Below, in pieces: positions 15,183 through 27,770 of a stretch of 64,000 nt of DNA; position 1 is the stretch's first letter, and every line of letters starts with the position of its first letter. The notes under the pieces are model-generated. The model was not told where the DNA came from, did no database searches, and saw only the letters and a program-made list of their open reading frames with translations. A program made the translations under genes and the position numbers. Where the stretch lies: positions 124,001 through 188,000 of the forward strand of contig JACRCV010000064.1 in the NCBI GenBank assembly GCA_016218825.1, given 5' to 3'. This DNA comes from Deltaproteobacteria bacterium. Its GTDB lineage: Bacteria > Myxococcota > XYA12-FULL-58-9.

Positions 15183-16657
15183 CGGTCCCGTTCACCGGCG
15201 TCGTGCCGATAGGCGCGGTAGGTGCCCCACACCCGGTCGACGTACGCCACGACCTCGCCGCCGCGGACGTAGCCGTGCTCGGCCTTGGCCGCGGTCTCGG
15301 CGCGCGACAACAGCCGCAGGCCGCGCGCGACGTTGGCCCACTTGTCGGGATCGAGCTTCTCGCTCGTCGCCACCAGCCGGGCGTCGGCGACGTGGCCGGC
15401 GCCGCAGGCGAACGAGGCCAAGGTCAGGCGCTGGCGCTCGTCGGCGTCGCTGACGCTCGCGAACTGGCCGCCCAGGCGCTGCAGGTAGATGGCGGCGGCG
15501 CGCGCCGCTTCGGCGGGGTTCTTCAGATCTTCGACGCCGAGCTCGCGGCCGGTGGCCGGTAACATCCCGAACAGGCCGACGCCGCCGTTCCACACCTCGT
15601 TCTTCGGATCGAAGCCGCTCTCCTCGACGGCGATGGCGGCGAGCAGGCGCCAGTCGAGTCCGTGCGGCTCCGCGGCGGCGCGCAGCACCGCGTCGTAGGG
15701 TGAGATCGGGCCGCTGTGCCGTGACCGCGCCCGCGGCAGGTCGCGGGCCTTGCGCCGCGGCGTCTCGTAGTAGCGCTTGAGGATGACGTCGAGCTCGCCG
15801 TTCTTCCTGAGGTTGTCCATGAAGCGATCGATCTCGGCGGCGAGGTCGTCGGCGCCCTGCGCCACCGCCCAGGCGAGCGGCTGCGGGTCGCTGACCCGCG
15901 GCCCGATCACCAGGTCTTGCAGGTACGACTTGTTCTCCATGCAGATGGGATAGTCGCACAGGGTGTAGGGGATGCGGCCGGCGGCGACCTCTTCGAGGAT
16001 CTGCTCGGTCTCCAGGCTCTCGCTCTCGAGGACGACGTCGATCGCCGGCTTGCGCGCCGCCTCGAACAAGCCGTTCAGCTCTTGCAGGCGACGGTAATAC
16101 GCCGAGTTCATCCGCACGTGCACCGGGCGGCCGGCGAGATCCTCGGGATCTTTCAGGCGCTTGTGCCCCCTGCCCCAGACGACGCGCATGTGCGTCAGGG
16201 TGTAGGGCTGCGCGAACCGAACCTCTTTGTCGCGCTCCGGAGTCACCGTGAGCCCGGCGGCGATGAGGTCGGCCTTGCCGGCCTGCAAGGTCGGGATCAA
16301 GTCGCCCCAGTTCAGCGGCACGATGACCTCGAGGCTCAGGTTGAGACTCGCCGCGAAGCGCTGCGCCAGCTCGTAGTCGAAGCCGAGGCGCCGTCCGTGC
16401 CACACGAAGTAGCTGATGCCGTTGTTGCGCGTCAGAAGCCGCAGGCGGCCGCGGGCGCGCACCGCGCCGAGGCCGACCGTCCTGTCCACCGCCGCCGGCG
16501 CGCTCCCGGTCGGCGTCGCGACCGGCGCCGCCGCGGACGGCGCCCGGGGCTCACAGCCCGCCGCCAGCCCCAGCGCCCACACCAGGACGACGGCGCGCCG
16601 GACGTAGGGGGCGGTTGCTGCCGCTCTGCTCAGCGCCGAACCGGGCATCGGGTTCAT
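15179..16657 (-). CDS. mltF: MltF-type membrane-bound lytic transglycosylase (solute-binding + SLT domains)
   Basis: The 492-residue product has a lipoprotein signal ending in LAAGC (Cys35), then a family-3 solute-binding domain (about residues 65-300: RLRLLTRNN, FDYELAQRFA, GKADLIAAGLTVTPER, GELDVILKRYYE). A C-terminal SLT domain follows (about residues 320-480: AIAVEESGFDPKN with the catalytic Glu, GLFGMLPATGREL). This is the MltF architecture, in which the binding domain controls the lytic domain, by muropeptides in Pseudomonas. Its start overlaps the stop of the REC-GGDEF gene (16654-16657) and its stop overlaps the slt start, giving a tight three-gene operon. Confidence 0.9.
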   Translation of the reverse strand: MNPMPGSALSRAAATAPYVRRAVVLVWALGLAAGCEPRAPSAAAPVATPTGSAPAAVDRTVGLGAVRARGRLRLLTRNNGISYFVWHGRRLGFDYELAQRFAASLNLSLEVIVPLNWGDLIPTLQAGKADLIAAGLTVTPERDKEVRFAQPYTLTHMRVVWGRGHKRLKDPEDLAGRPVHVRMNSAYYRRLQELNGLFEAARKPAIDVVLESESLETEQILEEVAAGRIPYTLCDYPICMENKSYLQDLVIGPRVSDPQPLAWAVAQGADDLAAEIDRFMDNLRKNGELDVILKRYYETPRRKARDLPRARSRHSGPISPYDAVLRAAAEPHGLDWRLLAAIAVEESGFDPKNEVWNGGVGLFGMLPATGRELGVEDLKNPAEAARAAAIYLQRLGGQFASVSDADERQRLTLASFACGAGHVADARLVATSEKLDPDKWANVARGLRLLSRAETAAKAEHGYVRGGEVVAYVDRVWGTYRAYRHDAGERDR

Positions 16658-18432
16658 CCTCGAAGACCGAGGCGGCGCAGCTTGTCCCGGACCTCGACGG
16701 CGAGATCGGCGCGGGCAAAGGGCGGCTCGGGATGGCCGAAGAAGAAGCCCTGCAAGAGCGGACAGCCGAGCTTCAACAGCAGCTCGACCTGCGTTTCGGT
16801 CTCCACGCCGACCGCGACCACGCGCTGGCCCTCGCCGGCGGCGTACTCCATGATGTGCTTCAACAGGCGGGCGCCGCGACCGCCGGCCGGCAGGTTCGAG
16901 AACAGCGCCGGCCCGATCTTGACGTAGTCGACCTCCAGGCGCGCCAGCGCCTCCAGCCCGGCGTACCCCGAGGTCAGGTTGTCGAGCGCGACCTCGAAGC
17001 CGTGGTCGCGAAGCCGACGGAGGGTCGCGTAGATCCGGGTGTCCTCCGCGAGCAACGTCTGCTCGGTCACCTCCAACACCAGCTTCGCGGTGCCGGCGCC
17101 CAAGCTCGCCCCGTCCTGGAACAGCAGCGGGTCGTGCAGCTCGGCGACGTGGAGGTTCAAGAACAGCTTGGCGTCGCGCCCCAGGTCGGCGAGGGGCGCC
17201 AAGGCGAGGGGACGGATCATCCGCCCGAGATCGGTCACCCGCCCGCCGCGCTCGGCGACGGCGAACAGCTCGCGGACGTTGGCGAACGCCCCGTGTGTCG
17301 GGCTGCAGAGCGCCTCGTAGCCGACCACCTGCCAGCGCTTGGCGTCGACGACCGGCTGGTAGAGAAGACGGACCGCGCGGCTGACGAGCGTCTCCTCCAA
17401 CGCCAGCACGCGCTTCTCGGCGTCGCCCACCGGCAACCCGGCAGGTGCGTCCGCGGACGCCAACGACGGCTCGTAGCTCATCACCCGGTTGCGCCCCATT
17501 CTCTTGGCGGCATAGAGCGCCGCGTCGGCGGCCCGGACCACCGCGGCGCGGTCGGCGCCGTCCTCCGGGAAGCCGCCGACGCCGATCGACAGCGTGATCG
17601 AGGTCTCGACGCCGTCGAAGCGGGTGCCCTCCATGCAGCTGCGGAGGCGCTCGGCCTTGATCGCCGCACCCGCCTTCGCGGTCTCCGGGAGCAACAGCAC
17701 GAACTCGTCGCCGCCGTAGCGCGCCGCGATGTCGTGCTCGCGGAGACGGAAGCCTTCGTCCGAGCTCCGGCAGTTGCCGCGAAACAGATCGGCGATGCCG
17801 CGCAGGACGCGGTCGCCCACCTGGTGGCCGAAGGTGTCATTGATCTCCTTGAAGCGGTCGACGTCGATGAACACCAGGCCGACGTCGTGACCGTGGCGGT
17901 CGCTGCGCTTGATCTCGCTCTCGAGGCGCTCCTGCAGGTAGGCGTGGTTGAACAGCCCGGTGAGGCCGTCCTTCACCACCAGCTCTTGCAGCCGGGCGTT
18001 CTTCTCCGACAGCTCGGCGACCAGCGCCCGGTTCTCGCGCTTCAGGTTGAGGTGCTCGACGACGCGCCGGATCCGATCGGCCACCACGTCGATGCTGTCG
18101 AAGGGCTTCACCAGGTAGTCGCCGACCCGCATGCGGATGGCCTCGACCGCGGACTCCAGGCTCGCGAACGCGCTCATGATGATGACTTCGCAGTCCGGCG
18201 CTTCGGCCAGGACTTGGCGTACCAGATCCAGGCCGCTGCCGTCCCCGAGGTTCTTGTCGCAGATGACGAGATCGAAACGGCCGGCGACGAAGCCGGCCTT
18301 GCCCGCCTGCAGACCGTCGGCGGTGTCGATGACGAAGCCGGCGTCGGCGAGCAGCTCCTGGAGCACCACCCGGACGCTGGCGTCGTCGTCGACGACGAGC
18401 ACCCGAAGGCCCTGGCCGAACCGCTCGCTCAC
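16654..18432 (-). CDS. Response regulator with GGDEF and degenerate EAL domains
   Basis: The 592-residue protein has an N-terminal receiver domain (VLVVDDD, phospho-acceptor Asp in LVICDKNLGDGSGL, LVKPF), a short coiled coil and a GGDEF domain with intact RYGGDEF. This last should make c-di-GMP. A C-terminal EAL-like domain follows. The EAL triplet is present in GYEALCSP, but downstream catalytic positions are lost: LDNLTSGYAG replaces DDFGTGYS, VKIGPALF lacks the KID Asp, and AVGVETE lacks the usual first Glu. It is probably a diguanylate cyclase with a sensory EAL remnant. The GTG at 18432 has GGGAGG 6 nt upstream and is preferred over the ATG at 18468. It leads the operon with two lytic transglycosylases. 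Confidence 0.88.
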   Translation of the reverse strand: MSERFGQGLRVLVVDDDASVRVVLQELLADAGFVIDTADGLQAGKAGFVAGRFDLVICDKNLGDGSGLDLVRQVLAEAPDCEVIIMSAFASLESAVEAIRMRVGDYLVKPFDSIDVVADRIRRVVEHLNLKRENRALVAELSEKNARLQELVVKDGLTGLFNHAYLQERLESEIKRSDRHGHDVGLVFIDVDRFKEINDTFGHQVGDRVLRGIADLFRGNCRSSDEGFRLREHDIAARYGGDEFVLLLPETAKAGAAIKAERLRSCMEGTRFDGVETSITLSIGVGGFPEDGADRAAVVRAADAALYAAKRMGRNRVMSYEPSLASADAPAGLPVGDAEKRVLALEETLVSRAVRLLYQPVVDAKRWQVVGYEALCSPTHGAFANVRELFAVAERGGRVTDLGRMIRPLALAPLADLGRDAKLFLNLHVAELHDPLLFQDGASLGAGTAKLVLEVTEQTLLAEDTRIYATLRRLRDHGFEVALDNLTSGYAGLEALARLEVDYVKIGPALFSNLPAGGRGARLLKHIMEYAAGEGQRVVAVGVETETQVELLLKLGCPLLQGFFFGHPEPPFARADLAVEVRDKLRRLGLRG

Positions 18433-18593
18433 AGTGGCCTCCCGCCCTGGTTCGCGCCATTGAAACACTCACCGCCGGCCGTTTCAAGGGCCGTGACGCA
18501 CTGCATCTTACCGCAACTTCTCGCAAAATCCGCCGAAAACCTACCTACTACCGAGTGCACGGTCCGGCCGCACCGCGGCAGTTGGAGAGGGTC

Positions 18594-20801
18594 ATGCCGA
18601 AGGTCTACGACGTCAAGCTCAACGAGCTCGCCGGCCGCCTGTCCGCCGACGGCACGCTCTCCGAAATCGACGTCAACGCGCTCATCGACCAGGCGATGGC
18701 GGACGGCGCGCTCTCGAGCGCGGGGCGCAACGAGCTCAAGATCCTGCTCTGCCGCTATGCCGATCAGCTGGAGTCGCCGGCGGCGCGCGACCGGCTGCAG
18801 GGCTTCATCGGCATCGTCGACAAGTCGATCCGCGAGCTCGCCTCCCGCACCGAGAAGGACAAGGGCGTCATCGACGTGGCCGAGGCCGAGGCGCTCCTGG
18901 CGCTGGCCCGCAACAACCCGCGAATCTCCAAGCGCGAGACCCTGTCGCTGCAGGGCGTGATGATCGCGATGCACCTGACACCGGCGGCGCGCGCCGAGCT
19001 CGAGCGCGGCCTCGCCAAGACCGGCGCCCCGAGCCTCGACTTGAAGCTGCCGCCGATCCTCGGCCGCACCTACGTCCTGTCCACCGAAGGTCACTTCAGC
19101 ACCGGCAGCGGCGCCGCGCCGCGCTACGACGAGAACGGCGCCCTGACCGTCTACCGCGCCGCCGCCGCCCTCGCCCGCGCCCCCGCCGACGTCCTCAAGG
19201 ACGTGCCGACCGCGGTCAAGGAGAAGCTCTCGGCCCACCTGCAGCGCGCCCTCGCCGCCGGTGAAGACGCCGGGCCGCTGCCGCAGCTCTGGAAACAACG
19301 CCTGCGCGCCGGCGCCGCGACGACCCTGCTGGCGCTCATCGAGGGCTGTGGCGCCGATGACACCGCGGTCCGCGCCCAGGCGCTCGACCTGTACTTCGCC
19401 GCCGCCGACCGCGAGCCTGACGGCGGCCTGCGCGCTTCGATGTTCTTCAACCTCGAGCGCCTCGAGGCGTCGCTGACGCCGGCGGACCAGGCGCGGCTCC
19501 AGGCGCTCGGAAACCTCGTGATCCCGACGCGGCCGCCGTACGACAAGTGGCTGGCGGACGGCAAGCGCGAGATCCACGTCAAGCACTACGCGCACGCCGA
19601 CTGTTGGGCGAACAACGCCGAACCGGTCGCCGCCTACCGCGCGCGGGGCTTCCAGGTCGTCGAAGACCACTCGGCAGAGACCCCGAAGCGCTGGATCCTC
19701 GAGGGCACCAACGCCGCCGCGCCCGGCGGGCCGATCAAGGTCAAGGTGGACCTGGTCCAGAGCCACGACGGCATCTTCCAGAGCATGAGCGATCCGGACA
19801 ACCAGGTGATCCTCTACACCGGCCACTCGAACCTGGGCGGCAACGTCTCCGAGGAGCTGCGCCTCGGGCCGCAGGAGAAGGGCGCCAAGCTGATCTTGCT
19901 CGCGATGTGTCGCGGCAAGCAGAACATGTTCGAGGTCGCCAACAAGTACTCGGCGTCGCACTTCATCACCACCAACCACCCGTCCTACTTCACCTCGATG
20001 ATGCCGATGACGATGGGGGTGATCGACGGCATCATGAACCAGTGGGACTACGACACCATGCGCGCCCACATCCCCGCGATCTGGGACACCGATCAGATCG
20101 ACAACTACTTCTTCCCCAACCAGCGCCGGCGCTACGCGCTCTATGACCTCGACCGCGACGGCGTCGTCGACGGCCGCGGCCCGGGCGTCGACCGGATCTA
20201 CAACGTCGGCCTGAAGGTGCCCGCCGGCGCCAAGGCCGACGGCGTGCCGCGCGCCAACGACTACGCTCCCGAAGACCTCGACGGCTCCAAGGTGCTGCAC
20301 GCGGTGCAGTTCCTGAACACCTTGATGACCTACCACGTCGAGCACGGCCCGGGCAGCTCGGCCTTCGGGGCAGCGGACGCCGACGCGTTTCTCTCCGGCG
20401 GTTGGTTCGCGGGCAGAGACACCGAGCTGGTGCGCCTGACCAAGGAGACGGTCGGCGACCGCGACCTGGTGCGGGTCCAGGTGAACAAGGCGCTCGCAGA
20501 TCAAACGTGGCCGGTCCTCGGCGCCATCGTGCAGTGCGAGGTCGCGAAGCTGCTCGCCAAGGAACGCCGCGGCGGGGCGCTCTCCCGCGAAGACCTCGGC
20601 CGCGCGCTGCTGTTCGCCGGCGAGTACCTGTCCTACATGTACTGCAGCGCCGAAGAGGCCGAGGCCGCGGTGCGCGCCATCGGCCGCGACGCCGGCCTGC
20701 CCAAGCTCAGCTTCGCGAAGCTCGCCGAGGCCATCGACACCGACGGCCACGGCTACGCCACCGACCAGCAGCTGCAGGCGCTGCTCGCGCGCCTGCAGTA
20801 G
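18594..20801 (+). CDS. Large caspase-like protein with EF-hand-like segments
   Basis: The 735-residue product has no signal peptide. Its centre fits a caspase/gingipain-like hydrolase: HADCWANNAEPVAAYRARGF, then VILYTGHSNLGGN with candidate catalytic His411, then LILLAMCRGKQN with candidate Cys439. EF-hand-like Asp-rich loops occur at the N-terminus (LSADGTLSEIDVNALID, EKDKGVIDVAEAEAL), after the dyad (YDLDRDGVVDGRG) and at the C-terminus (AIDTDGHGYATDQQLQ), so calcium control is plausible. The ATG at 18594 has GGAGAGG before it. A second caspase-like gene follows after 6 bp. Protease activity is inferred from the His/Cys layout only. Confidence 0.6.
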   Translation: MPKVYDVKLNELAGRLSADGTLSEIDVNALIDQAMADGALSSAGRNELKILLCRYADQLESPAARDRLQGFIGIVDKSIRELASRTEKDKGVIDVAEAEALLALARNNPRISKRETLSLQGVMIAMHLTPAARAELERGLAKTGAPSLDLKLPPILGRTYVLSTEGHFSTGSGAAPRYDENGALTVYRAAAALARAPADVLKDVPTAVKEKLSAHLQRALAAGEDAGPLPQLWKQRLRAGAATTLLALIEGCGADDTAVRAQALDLYFAAADREPDGGLRASMFFNLERLEASLTPADQARLQALGNLVIPTRPPYDKWLADGKREIHVKHYAHADCWANNAEPVAAYRARGFQVVEDHSAETPKRWILEGTNAAAPGGPIKVKVDLVQSHDGIFQSMSDPDNQVILYTGHSNLGGNVSEELRLGPQEKGAKLILLAMCRGKQNMFEVANKYSASHFITTNHPSYFTSMMPMTMGVIDGIMNQWDYDTMRAHIPAIWDTDQIDNYFFPNQRRRYALYDLDRDGVVDGRGPGVDRIYNVGLKVPAGAKADGVPRANDYAPEDLDGSKVLHAVQFLNTLMTYHVEHGPGSSAFGAADADAFLSGGWFAGRDTELVRLTKETVGDRDLVRVQVNKALADQTWPVLGAIVQCEVAKLLAKERRGGALSREDLGRALLFAGEYLSYMYCSAEEAEAAVRAIGRDAGLPKLSFAKLAEAIDTDGHGYATDQQLQALLARLQ

Positions 20802-20807
20802 GTCGAC

Positions 20808-22298
20808 ATGCGCCGTCTCGCCCCCTCGCGACGCCGCGGCTCGCGCCTGATCTCGTCCGCGCCCGGCGCGGCGCTGCTGGCGGCGATCTGCGGGCCGGCC
20901 TGCACCGGCGGTCGGGCGCCCGAGCGACAAACCGAGACGCCGCGCGCGCTCGCGGCCGCGATGCAGTGGCTGGCGGCGGGGGGCGGCGACCTGCCGGAGA
21001 CCAACCAGCTGTCGATCGAGCAGGACCTGGCCCTGGCCGCCAAGGTCTTCGGACCGCAGGGGCGGCTGTTGTTTGCCGGCGGACCGGAGACCGAGAGCGT
21101 GCAGATCGCGACCCGCCTGCCGCCGCACAGCCTCCGCCTCGAGCTCGGCGCGCTCTTCGACCCGCGTCCCGGCCGCGACGCCCGCTACCGCAAGACGACG
21201 CTGCGCCCGGTCGGCCCGGCGACCGTCGAGCGCATCGCCGACCTGCTCCGCCAGGCCACCGCCACCGGCGACGGCGACCTCCTGGTCTACCTCGCCGGCC
21301 ACGGCTCGCTCGCCAAGCAGCCGAAGGACAACGGCTTCCTCACCTGGGGCAACGAGGTCTTGACCTCGATCGACCTGGCGCAGGTGTTGGACGCGGCGGC
21401 GCCGGCGCGGCGCGTGCGCCTGGTCGTGACCTCGTGCTTCTCGGGCGGCTTCGCCGAGACCTTGTTCGTCGGCGCCGCGAGCGAGCGCGGCCCGACGCCG
21501 CTCGATCGCTGCGGCCTGTTCGCGGCCACCGCCGATCAGGAGTCGAGCGGCTGCGATCCCGATCCGGATCGGCGGCGCCACGACGGCTACGGGGTCCACT
21601 TCCTGCACGCGCTCGCCGGTGAAGATCACCTCGGCCGCCCGCTCGCCGCCGGCAGCGCCGACCTCGACGGCGACGGCAAGATCTCGTTGCTCGAAGCGCA
21701 CACGCTGGTCGCGGCCCGCGCCCGCACCTTCGACGTCCCGACCACCACCTCGGAGCGCTGGCTCCGCGCCCGCGCCCCCAGCGAAGGCCCGAGCGCCGCG
21801 GTGGACCTGGTCGAAGAGGAGTGGCTGCTCACGGAGCTGTCGCGCCGCGCCGCGGACACCTCGATCGCCGGCGCCCAGGACGAGCTGGCGCAGCTGGACC
21901 TCGACCTGACCGCCGCGCGCGACGCGGTCGAGGAGGCGCGCGCCGCCGAGACCGACGCCTTCCGCGTGGTCGCGGCCGAGATGCTGTCCCGCTGGCCGGT
22001 CGTCAACGACCCGTGGCACCCGCTCTTCGACTCCACGCTGGCGGGCGAAGCGGCGCGCATCCGTCGCTATCTCGCCCGCGCCGACAGCGTCGCCGAGCAC
22101 CGCCAGGCCGCGGCCGCGGTCGATGACGCGGAGGCCGAGGTCGACCTGCTGCTGCGGCAGAAGGCGCTGGTGGAGAGGCGGGTGCGGGCGTTCGAGACCC
22201 TGCAGCGCGCCGGGCGCCTGCGGCACGTGGGCGGACGCGACTGGGAGATATTCGCGCGCCTCCGCGCCTGCGAGCGCAGCTTGCCGCCCCGACCCTGA
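20808..22298 (+). CDS. Secreted caspase-like (C13/C14-type) protein with EF-hand and coiled coil
   Basis: The 496-residue product has an N-terminal export signal, possibly lipoprotein-type. It contains a caspase-fold core: LLVYLAGHGSL with His165 and RLVVTSCFSGGF with Cys210, the legumain/caspase dyad pattern. A canonical EF-hand loop (DLDGDGKISLLE, residues 285-296) follows, then a long Ala/Glu/Arg-rich helical region likely to form a coiled coil. The dyad, EF-hand and gene order parallel the preceding gene, from which it is separated by 6 bp. A calcium-regulated proteolytic cascade is an inference. The start at 20808 is the only well-placed ATG. Confidence 0.7.
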   Translation: MRRLAPSRRRGSRLISSAPGAALLAAICGPACTGGRAPERQTETPRALAAAMQWLAAGGGDLPETNQLSIEQDLALAAKVFGPQGRLLFAGGPETESVQIATRLPPHSLRLELGALFDPRPGRDARYRKTTLRPVGPATVERIADLLRQATATGDGDLLVYLAGHGSLAKQPKDNGFLTWGNEVLTSIDLAQVLDAAAPARRVRLVVTSCFSGGFAETLFVGAASERGPTPLDRCGLFAATADQESSGCDPDPDRRRHDGYGVHFLHALAGEDHLGRPLAAGSADLDGDGKISLLEAHTLVAARARTFDVPTTTSERWLRARAPSEGPSAAVDLVEEEWLLTELSRRAADTSIAGAQDELAQLDLDLTAARDAVEEARAAETDAFRVVAAEMLSRWPVVNDPWHPLFDSTLAGEAARIRRYLARADSVAEHRQAAAAVDDAEAEVDLLLRQKALVERRVRAFETLQRAGRLRHVGGRDWEIFARLRACERSLPPRP

Positions 22299-22304
22299 GA
22301 CTCC

Positions 22305-24200
22305 ATGGTGCTCATGAATACCATCCATATCGCGCGCCGCCCCCTGTGGGCATTCATCCTGTTCTTGCCGGGCGCACTCGTCCTGTCGGCGTGCTCGACC
22401 TCGAAGCCGTCGATCGGCGCGACGCCGGACCCTTGCCCCGCGCCGGCGACGATCGAGGTGGAGACCCTCGGCGACTTGACGGCGGCGCCGCCCTGCCCGG
22501 GAATGACGGCGCTGGTGCGCGGCTTCTACGCCGCGGGCGACTACGGCGGCGGGGCCTGGTATTGGGACGACGGGCGCTCGAAGGCGGAACACAACGGCGG
22601 CACGGTGGTCGACCCCACCCATTCGATGGCTCCAGGCAGCCCCGGCTGGTGGGACGCCGAGCACGACGGCCGGGGGGTCTGGATCCGCGAGCTCTCTGAG
22701 CCCGTCGACGTGCGCTGGTTTGGCGCGGTCGGCGACGGCGCTCACGACGACACCCAGGCACTGCAGAAAGTCATCGACTTCGGGACCGACGAGCGGCAGG
22801 CGATCTTCGTGCCCGGCTCCGACGCGTATTACAGGACCACCTACCATCTGGTCGTCACCGGACCGGTATCGATCTCCGGCGATCCCGGCCGAAGCGTCAT
22901 TCGCAATGAATTCGACCCGCGATGCACCGCCGACTGCTACTGGCCGGCGGTGCCGATCATCATCGGCACCTATGGCGCCCACGAGAAGCCCGGATCCGCG
23001 ACTGCCGCCTACGCTTTCCTCGAACACGGCTGCGCCATCGAAGCAGTCCTCGCTGCGAGCCCCGCGGCGCCCGTCTATCAGGTTGCGCTGAGAAGTCCTG
23101 ACGACGCTTCTCGCTTTACGCCGGGCGGCCTGGTTGCGCTGCGGGCCCAGCGCTTCATCCATTCCGGCGCGGGAGCCCATTTCTTCTCGACCGCGGTGGT
23201 GAACGAGGTGATCGCGGTCGATGCGACAACTGACGAGGTGAAGCTCACCCTGAAGCATCCTCTCCTCGATGATTTCGAACGCTGTGTCCCCTGCTCCCTG
23301 CCGGACGACGATCTGTGCGACTGCGCGCCCACGGCCGGCGCCGGCGCGGTCCCTACCGACGGCTATCCTACGATTCACCCCCTCAACACCGGGAGCCTCT
23401 TCAATTCCATGGTTGATGCCAGGCCGGCCGCGCTCGCCCGCGGCGTCACGATATACGGCATGACCTTCGAACGGGACCCGAGCGCCGGCCAGACGAAGGC
23501 GATTCATCTCGCGTGCTACGAGTGCTCGCTCACCAAGGTGGTCGCGAGGGGATACAACGGCATCACCGGCAACCCCGTGGCGTATTCGCGATTCGATCAC
23601 GTGGTGGTCGAGCACCGCTCTCGCGGTATCGAGCTCGCCTACCTGACGAGCAACAACCTGTTCCGAGGCCTGACCGTCAACCGGATCGCCGACAACGCGA
23701 CCAACGACGACTATCAGTTCGCGATTAGAGTCGGCACGGAGGACGGCGGCGCCGACAACATCTTGGAGGATTTTACGGTCTACGAGTGGGGCGAGCACGC
23801 GGGGAGCCAAGGCGTCGTGGCCGTGCTGGGGCCGCGCGGCGTCGTGCGAAACGGCGCGATCACGAACACGGCGTCGTACCCGAGCGCGGCCATCTCGATC
23901 GAGACCGCCTCGGCCCCGTTCACGGTCGACGGCGTGACGCTGACCGCGACCACACCCCGAAACGGACTCGTCATCAGCGGGCAGGATGTCAGCGTTTCGA
24001 GGCTCACGACGCAGGGAACGAGCGAGACGTTCCATGCGATCGTGGTCAACCCCTCGGCACAGCGCGTCTCCATCCGTGATTCAGTCTTGGGGATTGATGG
24101 CGCTCGGAGTGCGGCCGACTCGATCTACGAAAAGCCCGACATCAACGACAAGACCTGCGGCTGCGTCACGACCACGAACGTCGTGCAGTACCTTCCCTGA
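22305..24200 (+). CDS. Lipoprotein with pectate-lyase-3-like right-handed beta-helix
   Basis: The 631-residue product has a lipoprotein signal ending in LVLSAC (about residue 30). At about residues 130-160 it has VRWFGAVGDGAHDDTQALQKVI, the entry motif of Pectate_lyase_3 / tailspike-like beta-helices. Repetitive beta strands follow, with short turns such as VTIYGMTFER and GIELAYLTSNNLFRGLTV. Such folds occur in polysaccharide lyases and in phage or surface adhesins. Base composition is visibly less GC-biased than neighbouring genes, hinting at transfer. It follows the caspase-like gene by 6 bp. The ATG at 22314 is an alternative start. Polysaccharide cleavage is not shown. Confidence 0.7.
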   Translation: MVLMNTIHIARRPLWAFILFLPGALVLSACSTSKPSIGATPDPCPAPATIEVETLGDLTAAPPCPGMTALVRGFYAAGDYGGGAWYWDDGRSKAEHNGGTVVDPTHSMAPGSPGWWDAEHDGRGVWIRELSEPVDVRWFGAVGDGAHDDTQALQKVIDFGTDERQAIFVPGSDAYYRTTYHLVVTGPVSISGDPGRSVIRNEFDPRCTADCYWPAVPIIIGTYGAHEKPGSATAAYAFLEHGCAIEAVLAASPAAPVYQVALRSPDDASRFTPGGLVALRAQRFIHSGAGAHFFSTAVVNEVIAVDATTDEVKLTLKHPLLDDFERCVPCSLPDDDLCDCAPTAGAGAVPTDGYPTIHPLNTGSLFNSMVDARPAALARGVTIYGMTFERDPSAGQTKAIHLACYECSLTKVVARGYNGITGNPVAYSRFDHVVVEHRSRGIELAYLTSNNLFRGLTVNRIADNATNDDYQFAIRVGTEDGGADNILEDFTVYEWGEHAGSQGVVAVLGPRGVVRNGAITNTASYPSAAISIETASAPFTVDGVTLTATTPRNGLVISGQDVSVSRLTTQGTSETFHAIVVNPSAQRVSIRDSVLGIDGARSAADSIYEKPDINDKTCGCVTTTNVVQYLP

Positions 24201-24338
24201 ACCAGGCTGCACAAGCCTTCAAGAAGCTTGGCGCCATCCAAGGTCCGACCTCTAGCGCCGCCGTGCCCCCGCCGGGAGCGCAACCGTCGCAGCGCTCCGG
24301 ACAACATCGAGATGCCGCCGGTGACGGTCACTTCGCGG

Positions 24339-24366
24339 TTGCTCATTCCTGTCGGAGCCGTACAAT
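24339..24366 (+). promoter_or_regulatory. Sigma-70-type promoter of the 24404 gene
   Basis: TTGCTC (24339-24344) and TACAAT (24361-24366) are separated by 16 nt. A transcript starting near 24373 would place the GAGGGGG ribosome-binding site (24391) and GTG start (24404) normally downstream. The rest of the 203-bp gap after the pectate-lyase gene shows no gene. Confidence 0.45.
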
Positions 24367-24403
24367 AGGACGAGCAGCGACTCCGCGTACGAGGGGGCGA
24401 GCG

Positions 24404-25126
24404 GTGGTTCAACGGTCCAAGCTTCTAGGTGCGCTCGTCCAGCCGAAGGGCGGTGGCGTGCCGAGCGGCGGTCAGGCGATGGCGCCGGCCGCAACCACGC
24501 ACGCCGTGGGTGGTGCCAAGGACGCACCGGCCGTCATGCGGCGCGCCGATCCGATGGTCGACCTGGAGCGCGGCTCCGACCGCTATGGGGTCCGGAACCC
24601 GGCCAAGGCAAGGGAGTTCGCCGAGCGGGACGGCGCGGCGACGCATCAGACGCGGGCCAGGATCGACCAAGCCAAACGTGAACTGAAGAAGCTGACGCCC
24701 CTGGTAGGCCAAGCCGCGAGCGCCGAGCCGCGCGTCTGCGGTCCGGGCGTCATCAAGCTGGCGTGGCTGCTGGCGAGCGTCGGGCCGGACGATCTCGACG
24801 CGCCGACCCGCGCCGACGTCCAACGCGGTCTCGACCGGTTTCTCAGCGCCGTGCTCGCTCGGGTTCCCGCCGGCCAATCGATCGCCATCGACGTGCCCCG
24901 GGACGGGGTGACCTCGCTGCGGGCGGCCCACAACCGCCAGGTCAACGTGTTCGACACCGACGGCTTCGCGCGCGGCTTCGAGTTCCTGATCAACGAGGCC
25001 CCGGCGAAGTTCGGCCTCGAGGAACGCCACCACGCCGAGGCGAAAGTCGCGACCGTCGAGGAAGATCTGCGGCACGGTCTCGGCACCGACGACGTCCAGC
25101 GGGTCGTCATCGCGATGAAGTCGTAG
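24404..25126 (+). CDS. Hypothetical protein, soluble
   Basis: The 240-residue product has no signal peptide or membrane helix. It has a disordered N-terminus (residues 1-60), then a helical region (VQRGLDRFLSAVLARVPAGQ) and a mixed alpha/beta C-terminal half (QSIAIDVPRDGVTSLRAAH, VNVFDTDGFARGFEFLINEAPAKF). No family is recognised. The GTG at 24404 follows GAGGGGG by 7 nt and is preferred over the open frame upstream to 24263. It stands alone, with its own promoter, convergent with the oxidoreductase gene. Codon use looks normal for the genome, so it is probably a real lineage-specific gene. Confidence 0.55.
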   Translation: MVQRSKLLGALVQPKGGGVPSGGQAMAPAATTHAVGGAKDAPAVMRRADPMVDLERGSDRYGVRNPAKAREFAERDGAATHQTRARIDQAKRELKKLTPLVGQAASAEPRVCGPGVIKLAWLLASVGPDDLDAPTRADVQRGLDRFLSAVLARVPAGQSIAIDVPRDGVTSLRAAHNRQVNVFDTDGFARGFEFLINEAPAKFGLEERHHAEAKVATVEEDLRHGLGTDDVQRVVIAMKS

Positions 25127-26357: not shown

Positions 26358-27770
26358 ATGCAAGCCGAGCTCTATTCTCATGGTGCCGCCGGCGAAGTGA
26401 CCGGCTCGAAGCACTTCCTCAAGGTCAAAGACACCACTCTGATGGTGGACTGCGGCGCCTTTCAGGGGCGGCGTGACGAGTCAGATCGGAAGAACCGCGA
26501 GTGGCCCTTCGATGCGCGAGAGATCAGCGCCGTGGTGCTGTCGCACGCGCACTTCGACCACTGCGGCCTGTTGCCGCTCGTCGCCAAGCGCGGCTTCGCG
26601 GGTAACGTCTACAGCACCCCGGCGACCCGCGACCTCGCGAGCCTGGTGATGATGGACTCGGCGAACATCCAGGCCAAAGATCTCGAGTACCTGCGCAAGC
26701 GCGCCCGCAAGCGCGGCCAAAGCTTCGACAAGCAGCCGCTCTACGGCGAGAACGAGGTGGTCGCCGCCCTCGAGCGCTTCATGACCGTGTCCTACCACCG
26801 CCGTTTCGCGTGCGCCGACGGCATGACCGCGACCTTCTACGACGCCGGCCACATCCTCGGCTCGGCCGCAACCGTGATCGAGGCGCGCCACAACAACCAG
26901 GTGCTCAAGGTCGGCTTCACCGGCGACCTCGGGCGGCCGGGGCTGCCGATCCTCCGCGATCCGGAGCAGATCCCCGCGGTGCACTACCTGGTCATCGAGA
27001 GCACCTATGGCAACCGCCTGCACAAGCCCATCGACCAGGCGGCGAGCGACCTCGCCGCGGCGGTGACCAAGACCGTCGAGCGCGGCGGCAAGGTCATCAT
27101 CCCGGCGTTCGCGATCGAGCGGGTGCAGGAGCTGGTGTACTACCTGCACCTGTCGGTGCGCGAGCGGAAGATCCCCAAGGTGCCGATCTACGTCGACAGC
27201 CCGATGGCCTCGAACGCCACCGCGATCTACCAGGTGCACCAGGAGTGCTACGACGACGAGACCCGCGCCCTGTTCCTCTCCGACCACAAGAACCCGTTCG
27301 GCTTCGACGACCTGACGTATGTCAGCAGCGTCGCGCAGAGCAAACGCCTGAACGACCTGAAGAAGCCGGCGATCATCATCGCCAGCTCCGGTATGTGCGA
27401 GGCCGGCCGCATCCTGCACCACCTGCTGAACAACATCGAAGATCCGAAGAACACCATCCTCGTGGTCGGCTACATGGCGGCGGGCACGCTCGGCCGCCGG
27501 ATCCTGGAGCGCGAGAGCCCGCTGAACATCCTCGGCGAGCTCCGCACCCCCGCGGCCGAGGTCAAGGTCCTCAACACCTTCAGCGCCCACGCCGACTACA
27601 ACGACATCCTGGCCTACGTCGGCAGGCTCGACCGCGCCGAGCTCCGCGAGGTCTTCCTGGTGCACGGCGAGGCCGACTCCCAGACCAACCTCAAGCGCCT
27701 CCTCGAGGCCCAGCACACCAAGACGACCATCGTCAAACCCGGCGAGCGCTACCCGCTGTTCGCCGATTGA
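26358..27770 (+). CDS. Beta-CASP metallo-beta-lactamase-fold hydrolase (RNA/CPSF-type)
   Basis: The 470-residue protein has the metal motif SHAHFDHCG (HxHxDH), the second-metal loop DAGHILGSA, the Asp in FTGDLG, and the beta-CASP cap and terminal motifs (SGMCEAGRI, NTFSAHADYND, LVHGE). Proteins of this kind are zinc-dependent nucleases acting on RNA, related to CPSF-73 and bacterial RNase J relatives. The length is standard. GGAGGG precedes the ATG. It appears monocistronic; the HPr-like gene begins 190 bp downstream with its own promoter candidate. RNA as substrate is inferred from the family. Confidence 0.92.
   Translation: MQAELYSHGAAGEVTGSKHFLKVKDTTLMVDCGAFQGRRDESDRKNREWPFDAREISAVVLSHAHFDHCGLLPLVAKRGFAGNVYSTPATRDLASLVMMDSANIQAKDLEYLRKRARKRGQSFDKQPLYGENEVVAALERFMTVSYHRRFACADGMTATFYDAGHILGSAATVIEARHNNQVLKVGFTGDLGRPGLPILRDPEQIPAVHYLVIESTYGNRLHKPIDQAASDLAAAVTKTVERGGKVIIPAFAIERVQELVYYLHLSVRERKIPKVPIYVDSPMASNATAIYQVHQECYDDETRALFLSDHKNPFGFDDLTYVSSVAQSKRLNDLKKPAIIIASSGMCEAGRILHHLLNNIEDPKNTILVVGYMAAGTLGRRILERESPLNILGELRTPAAEVKVLNTFSAHADYNDILAYVGRLDRAELREVFLVHGEADSQTNLKRLLEAQHTKTTIVKPGERYPLFAD

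What the first reader, a model, noticed from the sequence alone, without database searches (positions are those of the whole stretch)
18594..22298. Two adjacent caspase-like proteins, both with EF-hand-type loops
Both proteins show a caspase-fold dyad pattern (His411/Cys439 in the first, His165/Cys210 in the second) and Asp-rich calcium loops. The second has a canonical EF-hand DLDGDGKISLLE. One lacks a signal peptide and the other seems exported, and they lie 6 bp apart. A calcium-controlled protease pair, perhaps a cascade or an enzyme with its pseudo-enzyme partner, is a plausible undescribed module. The pectate-lyase-fold lipoprotein 6 bp downstream may be part of it.
Basis: partly seen in the sequence, partly recalled or inferred. 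Interest (0 to 1): 0.62.

Follow-up and report, generated by a model that had tools for sequence, protein, structure and literature searches.

The report
Caspase-like protein with shared effector module
Two neighbouring bacterial genes encode caspase-like proteins that are not a conserved pair, but the first belongs to an unnamed protease-like family whose front end is shared with calpain-like and transglutaminase-like enzymes, suggesting a common way of steering a set of cutting and cross-linking enzymes.

Summary
Both open reading frames, both His/Cys pairs and both Asp-rich loops are real. P1 (18594-20801) matches no Pfam, NCBIfam or PADLOC family at cut-off, yet His411 and Cys439 are invariant in 72 of 72 aligned homologues, and profile comparison puts them on the catalytic His and Cys of Peptidase_C14. 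P2 (20808-22298) is a distant Peptidase_C14 relative, probably exported; its 'EF-hand' sits where neighbouring C14 proteins carry the same loop. The proposed module fails: P1 and P2 are adjacent only in this genome and one congener, their co-occurrence over 195 genomes is not significant, and the pectate-lyase-like gene is not conserved. The unexpected result is P1's N-terminal helical module. It recurs without a signal peptide in front of Peptidase_C2 (calpain) and TGase_elicitor domains whose catalytic motifs are mostly intact. I read P1 as an active, probably Ca2+-bound, leaderless caspase-like cysteine peptidase, one of a set of cysteine enzymes steered by a common adaptor or export module. 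Activity, calcium binding and the module's role are inferred. The structure models were too poor to test dyad geometry.

The parts
18594..18833 (+). P1 residues 1-80: N-terminal helical module, shared with calpain-like and transglutaminase-like proteins
   Evidence: HMM of A5: copy 1 at residues 1-80, i-E 1.6e-26 (the profile was built partly from it); A5 search of 16 genomes
18822..19007 (+). P1 residues 77-138: second, diverged copy of the module
   Evidence: i-E 3.8e-7; also found at G000:C40:142822-143013
18594..20801 (+). P1, 735 aa caspase-like protein, no signal peptide; H411 codon 19824-19826, C439 codon 19908-19910
   Evidence: H411 72/72, C439 72/72; hhalign to C14
20145..20192 (+). 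P1 Asp-rich loop, residues 518-533 (DxDxDGxxD...D)
   Evidence: D518/D520 70 of 72, D522 69, D526 67, D533 69; predicted, not shown, to bind Ca2+
20808..22298 (+). P2, 496 aa, probably exported caspase-like protein (H165, C210), long C-terminal helices
   Evidence: hhalign to C14 E=2e-10; NCBIfam caspase_w_EACC1 5.8e-7, under its cut-off; H165 19/20, C210 20/20
21660..21695 (+). P2 EF-hand-like loop, residues 285-296 (DLDGDGKISLLE)
   Evidence: D285 20/20; the same kind of loop is present at this site in C14 domains of the same order
22305..24200 (+). P3, pectate-lyase-fold lipoprotein-like protein; not considered part of the system
   Evidence: Pect-lyase_RHGA_epim 1.4e-6; match in 3 of 195 genomes, two of them marginal partial hits; absent from the syntenic locus in G006

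Best explanation
P1 is an intracellular or leaderless, caspase-like (clan CD type) cysteine peptidase of a family not described by Pfam or NCBIfam. His411 and Cys439 form the catalytic dyad at the ends of two adjacent strands, and the Asp-rich loop about 80 residues later binds Ca2+ and orders the active site. Its N-terminal helical module is a common handle, an adaptor or an export tag, that steers it and the module-bearing calpain-like and transglutaminase-like enzymes of the same phylum to one partner or machine. P2 is a separate, probably exported caspase-like protein of the C14 type that happens to sit next to P1 in this genus. Shown by computation: conservation of the dyad and loop, remote similarity to C14, sharing of the module. 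Inferred: proteolysis, calcium control, the role of the module.
For: H411 and C439 in 72 of 72 homologues, most at 24-56% identity, no pseudo-enzyme seen. hhalign of the P1 core against C14 domains: E=8e-4 (37 sequences) and 0.0015 (72 sequences), with both catalytic residues in register; with gappy columns removed 0.0069, and 0 of 150 column shuffles reach it. Accepted clan CD pairs score C14-C11 0.0053, C14-CHAT 0.0052, C25-C11 0.2. Against C25 the His is in register: 0.019, 0 of 150. Strands are predicted just before H411 (405-409) and C439 (432-435), at low confidence. Module: 34 of 72 P1-family members carry it. Of 44 other module proteins, 13 match TGase_elicitor and 11 Peptidase_C2. Calpain Cys motif in 11 of 11, His motif in 10, RNP motif in 10; WWGxC in 15 of 46; no hydrophobic leader in 46 of 46.
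Against: No Pfam, NCBIfam, PADLOC or PDB sequence match for P1. hhalign probability is only 16-24%, and the E-value weakens to 0.0069 when gappy columns are removed. CHAT and C11 are near chance (3 and 10 of 150). Structure models are poor. The P1 homologue of the congener G006, the one other genome with the P1-P2 pair, has lost the module. Only 34 of 72 P1-family members have the module, and the four P1 paralogues of the window's genome do not. 20 of 46 module proteins are neither calpain-like nor TG-like by motif.
Confidence: 0.55

Rival explanations
1. The shared module is an export tag: P1, the calpain-like and the TG-like enzymes are leaderless effectors delivered out of the cell, for example in predation.
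For: No signal peptide in 46 of 46 module proteins. One module protein has a C-terminal match to T3SS_needle_F, 2.2e-4 but below cut-off. One module protein in the window's genome matches a chagasin-type cysteine peptidase inhibitor, 1.2e-4, below cut-off. The enzymes are of kinds often found outside cells (general knowledge).
Against: The T3SS match is 1 of 3 similar proteins, and no secretion genes were recognised by eye around them (neighbours not scanned). The module genes are dispersed, with no machine seen nearby.
Confidence: 0.3
2. The module is an adaptor of the kind of the effector-associated domains (EADs): small helical, non-catalytic, homotypic, coupling effectors to a sensor inside the cell in a death or counter-invader response.
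For: Same organisation as described for EADs (passages of PMC8195603 and PMC7159879): small, predicted helical, terminal, several copies per genome, in front of different effector enzymes. One weak EAD9 match, 0.024, in L312.
Against: None of 14 module sequences scanned alone matches an EAD. No NTPase-based core system or other module protein was recognised next to P1. The enzymes are scattered in the genomes.
Confidence: 0.3
3. One reading: P1, P2 and P3 form one calcium-controlled protease module or cascade.
For: 6-bp gaps, same strand; P1-P2 also adjacent in G006.
Against: Co-occurrence p=0.12; P3 not conserved; four more distant P1 orthologues (G018, G019, G191, G193) have no P2 next to them.
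Confidence: 0.1
4. P1 is not a peptidase: the invariant His and Cys serve another chemistry or metal binding on an alpha/beta fold.
For: VIA-align gave small-GTPase-like matches at Z 5.5-6.2 over residues 319-488, from a poor model and within the range its own note calls common.
Against: Motif context and register with C14; low-confidence model.
Confidence: 0.2

Closest known systems
Peptidase family C14 (caspases, metacaspases, prokaryotic orthocaspases), clan CD
   Same: His and Cys at the ends of adjacent strands; Asp-rich loop after the Cys; P2 aligns over 149 columns
   Different: P1 shares only a 38-39 column block; H-C spacing 28-32 against 37-43 in the 23 of 24 local C14 domains where both were found; no Pfam C14 match
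Peptidase family C25 (gingipain type)
   Same: P1 His in register, 0 of 150 shuffles as good
   Different: Only a 23-column match around the His; the Cys was not aligned
NCBIfam caspase_w_EACC1 (NF047832)
   Same: P2 matches over 138 positions, E=5.8e-7
   Different: 29 bits against a cut-off of 140; no EACC1 partner examined
Effector-associated domains (EADs; PMC7159879, PMC8195603, passages read)
   Same: Small, terminal, predicted helical, repeated in a genome on different effectors
   Different: No EAD profile matches it reliably; no known core system seen nearby
Bacterial calpains, family C2 (PMC4631099, start of abstract and passages read)
   Same: 11 module proteins are Peptidase_C2; that paper also places the peptidase domain mostly C-terminal
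   Different: The N-terminal module is not mentioned in the passages read; the myxobacterial names I searched there gave 0 hits

Membership tests
Clan CD / Peptidase_C14 (P1) | Invariant His and Cys dyad | tested here: met
   72/72 each
Clan CD / Peptidase_C14 (P1) | Sequence similarity to the C14 profile at Pfam's cut-off | tested here: not met
   No C14 match; remote hhalign similarity only
Clan CD / Peptidase_C14 (P1) | Caspase-type alpha/beta/alpha fold | tested here: inconclusive
   Model mean pLDDT 54.8 from two sequences; Foldseek E>=0.019
Clan CD / Peptidase_C14 (P1) | Proteolytic activity | not testable with these tools
   needs protein
Peptidase_C14-like (P2) | His/Cys dyad and profile similarity | tested here: met
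   H165 19/20, C210 20/20; hhalign E=2e-10, probability 97%
Peptidase_C14-like (P2) | Curated family cut-off | tested here: not met
   caspase_w_EACC1 29 of 140 bits; Peptidase_C13 11.7 of 22.8 bits
EF-hand | 12-residue DxDxDG loop | tested here: met
   P2 285-296; Asp positions conserved. Weak Pfam scores, 14.3 of 25.9 bits
EF-hand | Paired helix-loop-helix that binds Ca2+ | not testable with these tools
   no reliable model, no binding data
EAD (effector-associated domain) | Small non-catalytic terminal domain on several different effectors in one genome | tested here: met
EAD (effector-associated domain) | Match to a described EAD family | tested here: not met
   none among 14 modules; one EAD9 at 0.024 in L312
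EAD (effector-associated domain) | Homotypic interaction with a core system | not tested
   no core system looked for genome-wide
Type III secretion effector/needle | Secretion genes linked to the module proteins | tested here: inconclusive
   none recognised by eye in three neighbourhoods; genome-wide search not done

The most novel reading that the evidence does not exclude
An undescribed N-terminal helical module steers a set of leaderless cysteine enzymes, caspase-like, calpain-like and transglutaminase-like, to one common partner or secretion machine in a bacterial phylum (probably Myxococcota). That would be a prokaryotic counterpart of the caspase, calpain and transglutaminase set of eukaryotic cell death, under one adaptor.
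Probability: 0.3. Interest if true: 0.8.

Novelty: new variant of a known kind. Interest (0 to 1): 0.6.

Why it matters
P1 defines a caspase-like family that the profile libraries searched here miss, with an unbroken dyad in 72 homologues. If the module is confirmed, one tag predicts which bacterial calpains, transglutaminases and caspase-like proteins act together, and gives a handle (pull down the module, or fuse it to a reporter) on what bacterial caspase-like proteins do, which is an open question.

Tried and rejected
Foldseek and VIA-align on the P1 model listed no caspase, only weak GTPase-like and helical-repeat matches, so I draw nothing from them. The P2 model was not searched.

P3 as part of the module: rejected. 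Pseudo-enzyme partner: rejected from conservation. L077_8 entered the P2 alignment by my mistake (it is a dehydrogenase-like protein) and was dropped before counting (recount). Six weak rows of 26 (L059-L062, L064, L065) were left out of the P2 counts. In the P1 set L011 (fragment), L043 (same place as L014), L039 and L040 (overlaps) were dropped, and the short or partial rows were not fetched.

Type III secretion link: kept as a lead only. Plasmids and phages: no P1 match. Viral contigs: none for P2. A link to TGL through L081_9 was considered and not claimed, since the module search did not find it. Papers: 9 searches. None of the listings I saw describes P1 or the module; most subscription papers are not held.
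Full report
What is there. The window holds three co-directional genes with 6-bp gaps: P1 18594-20801, P2 20808-22298, P3 22305-24200. Upstream and divergent lies a response regulator with GGDEF and EAL domains at 16654-18468. P1 matches no Pfam family above cut-off, no NCBIfam or PADLOC family, no PDB sequence at better than E 0.38, and none by profile. P2 has a weak Peptidase_C13 match (0.19) and an NCBIfam caspase match at 5.8e-7, below its cut-off.

P1 family. A protein search over 195 genomes of the phylum finds P1 relatives in 37; the profile finds 38. The phylum is unnamed; one orthologue record is a 'Deltaproteobacteria bacterium', so Myxococcota is my inference. Thirty-seven homologues aligned: H411 37/37, C439 37/37. 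With 35 further places fetched, 72 aligned: H411 72, C439 72, G410 72, G415 72; D518 and D520 70, the other two rows being gaps. H411 and C439 are the only His and Cys at that level; the next is H719 at 29 of 37. Spacing H-C is 28-32, and Cys to the Asp loop 72-103.

Is it a caspase-like protein? I built profiles of C14, CHAT, C25 and C11 domains from the same phylum (searches; C14 24 of 26 and CHAT 8 of 9 tried, the rest dropped for stops; C25 22 and C11 20). The P1 core aligns with C14 at E 8e-4 (37 rows, probability 24%) and 0.0015 (72 rows, 16%), with His on His and Cys on Cys. With gappy columns removed it is 0.0069, and 0 of 150 column shuffles are as good; C25 0.019, 0 of 150; C11 0.1, 10 of 150; CHAT 0.14, 3 of 150. 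Accepted clan CD pairs in the same set-up score between 8.5e-6 and 0.74 (that these four families share a clan is recalled). So the similarity is remote but specific. Direct P1-P2 comparison is weak: 0.051 full length, 0.014-0.019 core, and it is the Asp loops that align. P1 and P2 are thus not recent duplicates.

P2 family. Twenty homologues after dropping the rows named under Tried and rejected: H165 19 (L041 has F), C210 20, D285 20. P2 against C14: 2e-10. Its EF-hand-like loop is where 10 of 24 C14 domains show the same pattern, so it is a caspase-domain feature, not an added regulatory domain. Ten of 20 have a lipobox-like motif, P2 itself not. Three relatives (L046-L048) carry an AHH nuclease domain.

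Neighbourhood. P1-P2 adjacency occurs in the window and in G006:C434, where a gene similar to window 26358-27770 follows P2 directly. That makes P3 and the ORF at 24263 later arrivals here or losses in G006. Four other close P1 orthologues and four other close P2 orthologues stand without the other gene next to them (gene calls by a simple GC-position script, which did not work on the low-GC locus L075). Co-occurrence 7 genomes, p=0.12. P3: 3 of 195, two marginal.

The module. Several P1-profile hits covered only the N-terminus. These belong to other proteins: L260 is a calpain (Peptidase_C2 2.3e-33), L259 a TGase_elicitor protein (3.1e-11), L256 has DUF533 and a sub-threshold T3SS_needle_F match. 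A profile of 14 module sequences (A5, which included four such proteins) searched in 16 genomes, chosen because they already had P1 or module hits, finds it in 15 at E<=0.01, up to 13 matches per genome. I fetched 40 regions for non-P1 places; the weaker rows were mostly not fetched. Of 44 module proteins scanned, 13 match TGase_elicitor, 11 Peptidase_C2, 4 DUF533, 1 Inhibitor_I42, 1 T3SS_needle_F, 1 TSP3 and 1 DUF4332. NCBIfam gives only three marginal names. Catalytic motifs: calpain Cys 11 of 11, His 10, RNP 10; WWGxC in 15 TG-like, HVW in 12 of these 15; no hydrophobic leader in 46 of 46 (motifs recalled). By coordinates about 22 of the proteins hit are P1-family. P1 has two copies (1-80 and 77-138), 34 of 72 P1-family members have at least one, and the window genome's four P1 paralogues have none (some rows were cut to the matched stretch, so 34 is a lower bound). 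The congener G006 lacks it. Scanned alone, the module touches GA_3 in 4 of 14 (best 2.9e-4) and TerB in 2 of 14: probably a small helical bundle, unnamed.

How it works, most likely. P1 is a caspase-like cysteine peptidase (dyad conserved: shown; fold and activity: inferred), with an Asp loop that probably binds Ca2+ (conservation shown, binding inferred). The module is a shared handle (sharing shown). Whether it is an EAD-like adaptor or an export tag is open; I give the two equal weight. For EADs I read passages of PMC7159879 and PMC8195603; for prokaryotic caspases passages of PMC3501461 and PMC6426788; for bacterial calpains passages of PMC4631099. PMC6426788 reports an EF-hand motif in 7 archaeal orthocaspases, so the combination of caspase and EF-hand is not new.

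Verdict.

Noticed in passing
L046, L047, L048 (P2 relatives in G106, G108, G071): P2-type caspase-like proteins fused to a C-terminal AHH nuclease domain (E 1e-14 to 3e-10).
   Followed up: partly
L329:393-1238 (window's own genome, C66): Module protein with a sub-threshold match to chagasin-type cysteine peptidase inhibitor I42 (1.2e-4, full domain length): possible inhibitor carrying the same handle.
   Followed up: partly
L256, L328, L330: Module proteins with a similar C-terminal tail; one matches T3SS_needle_F at 2.2e-4, below cut-off. No secretion genes recognised nearby.
   Followed up: partly
L299, L305, L314, L315: Short module proteins with Gly/Ser/Pro-rich tails and a shared HLPxxD-like motif; no family found.
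   Followed up: no
L031 (G190): P1-family member with an inserted proprotein convertase P-domain (2.2e-20).
   Followed up: no
L081:12016-14055 (own genome): TGL transglutaminase-like protein (3.7e-21) convergent with and abutting a P1 paralogue (L002).
   Followed up: no
L041 (G002): P2 relative in which the catalytic His position is Phe: a possible natural pseudo-enzyme.
   Followed up: no
window 24263-25126: 287-aa ORF with no Pfam match downstream of P3.
   Followed up: no
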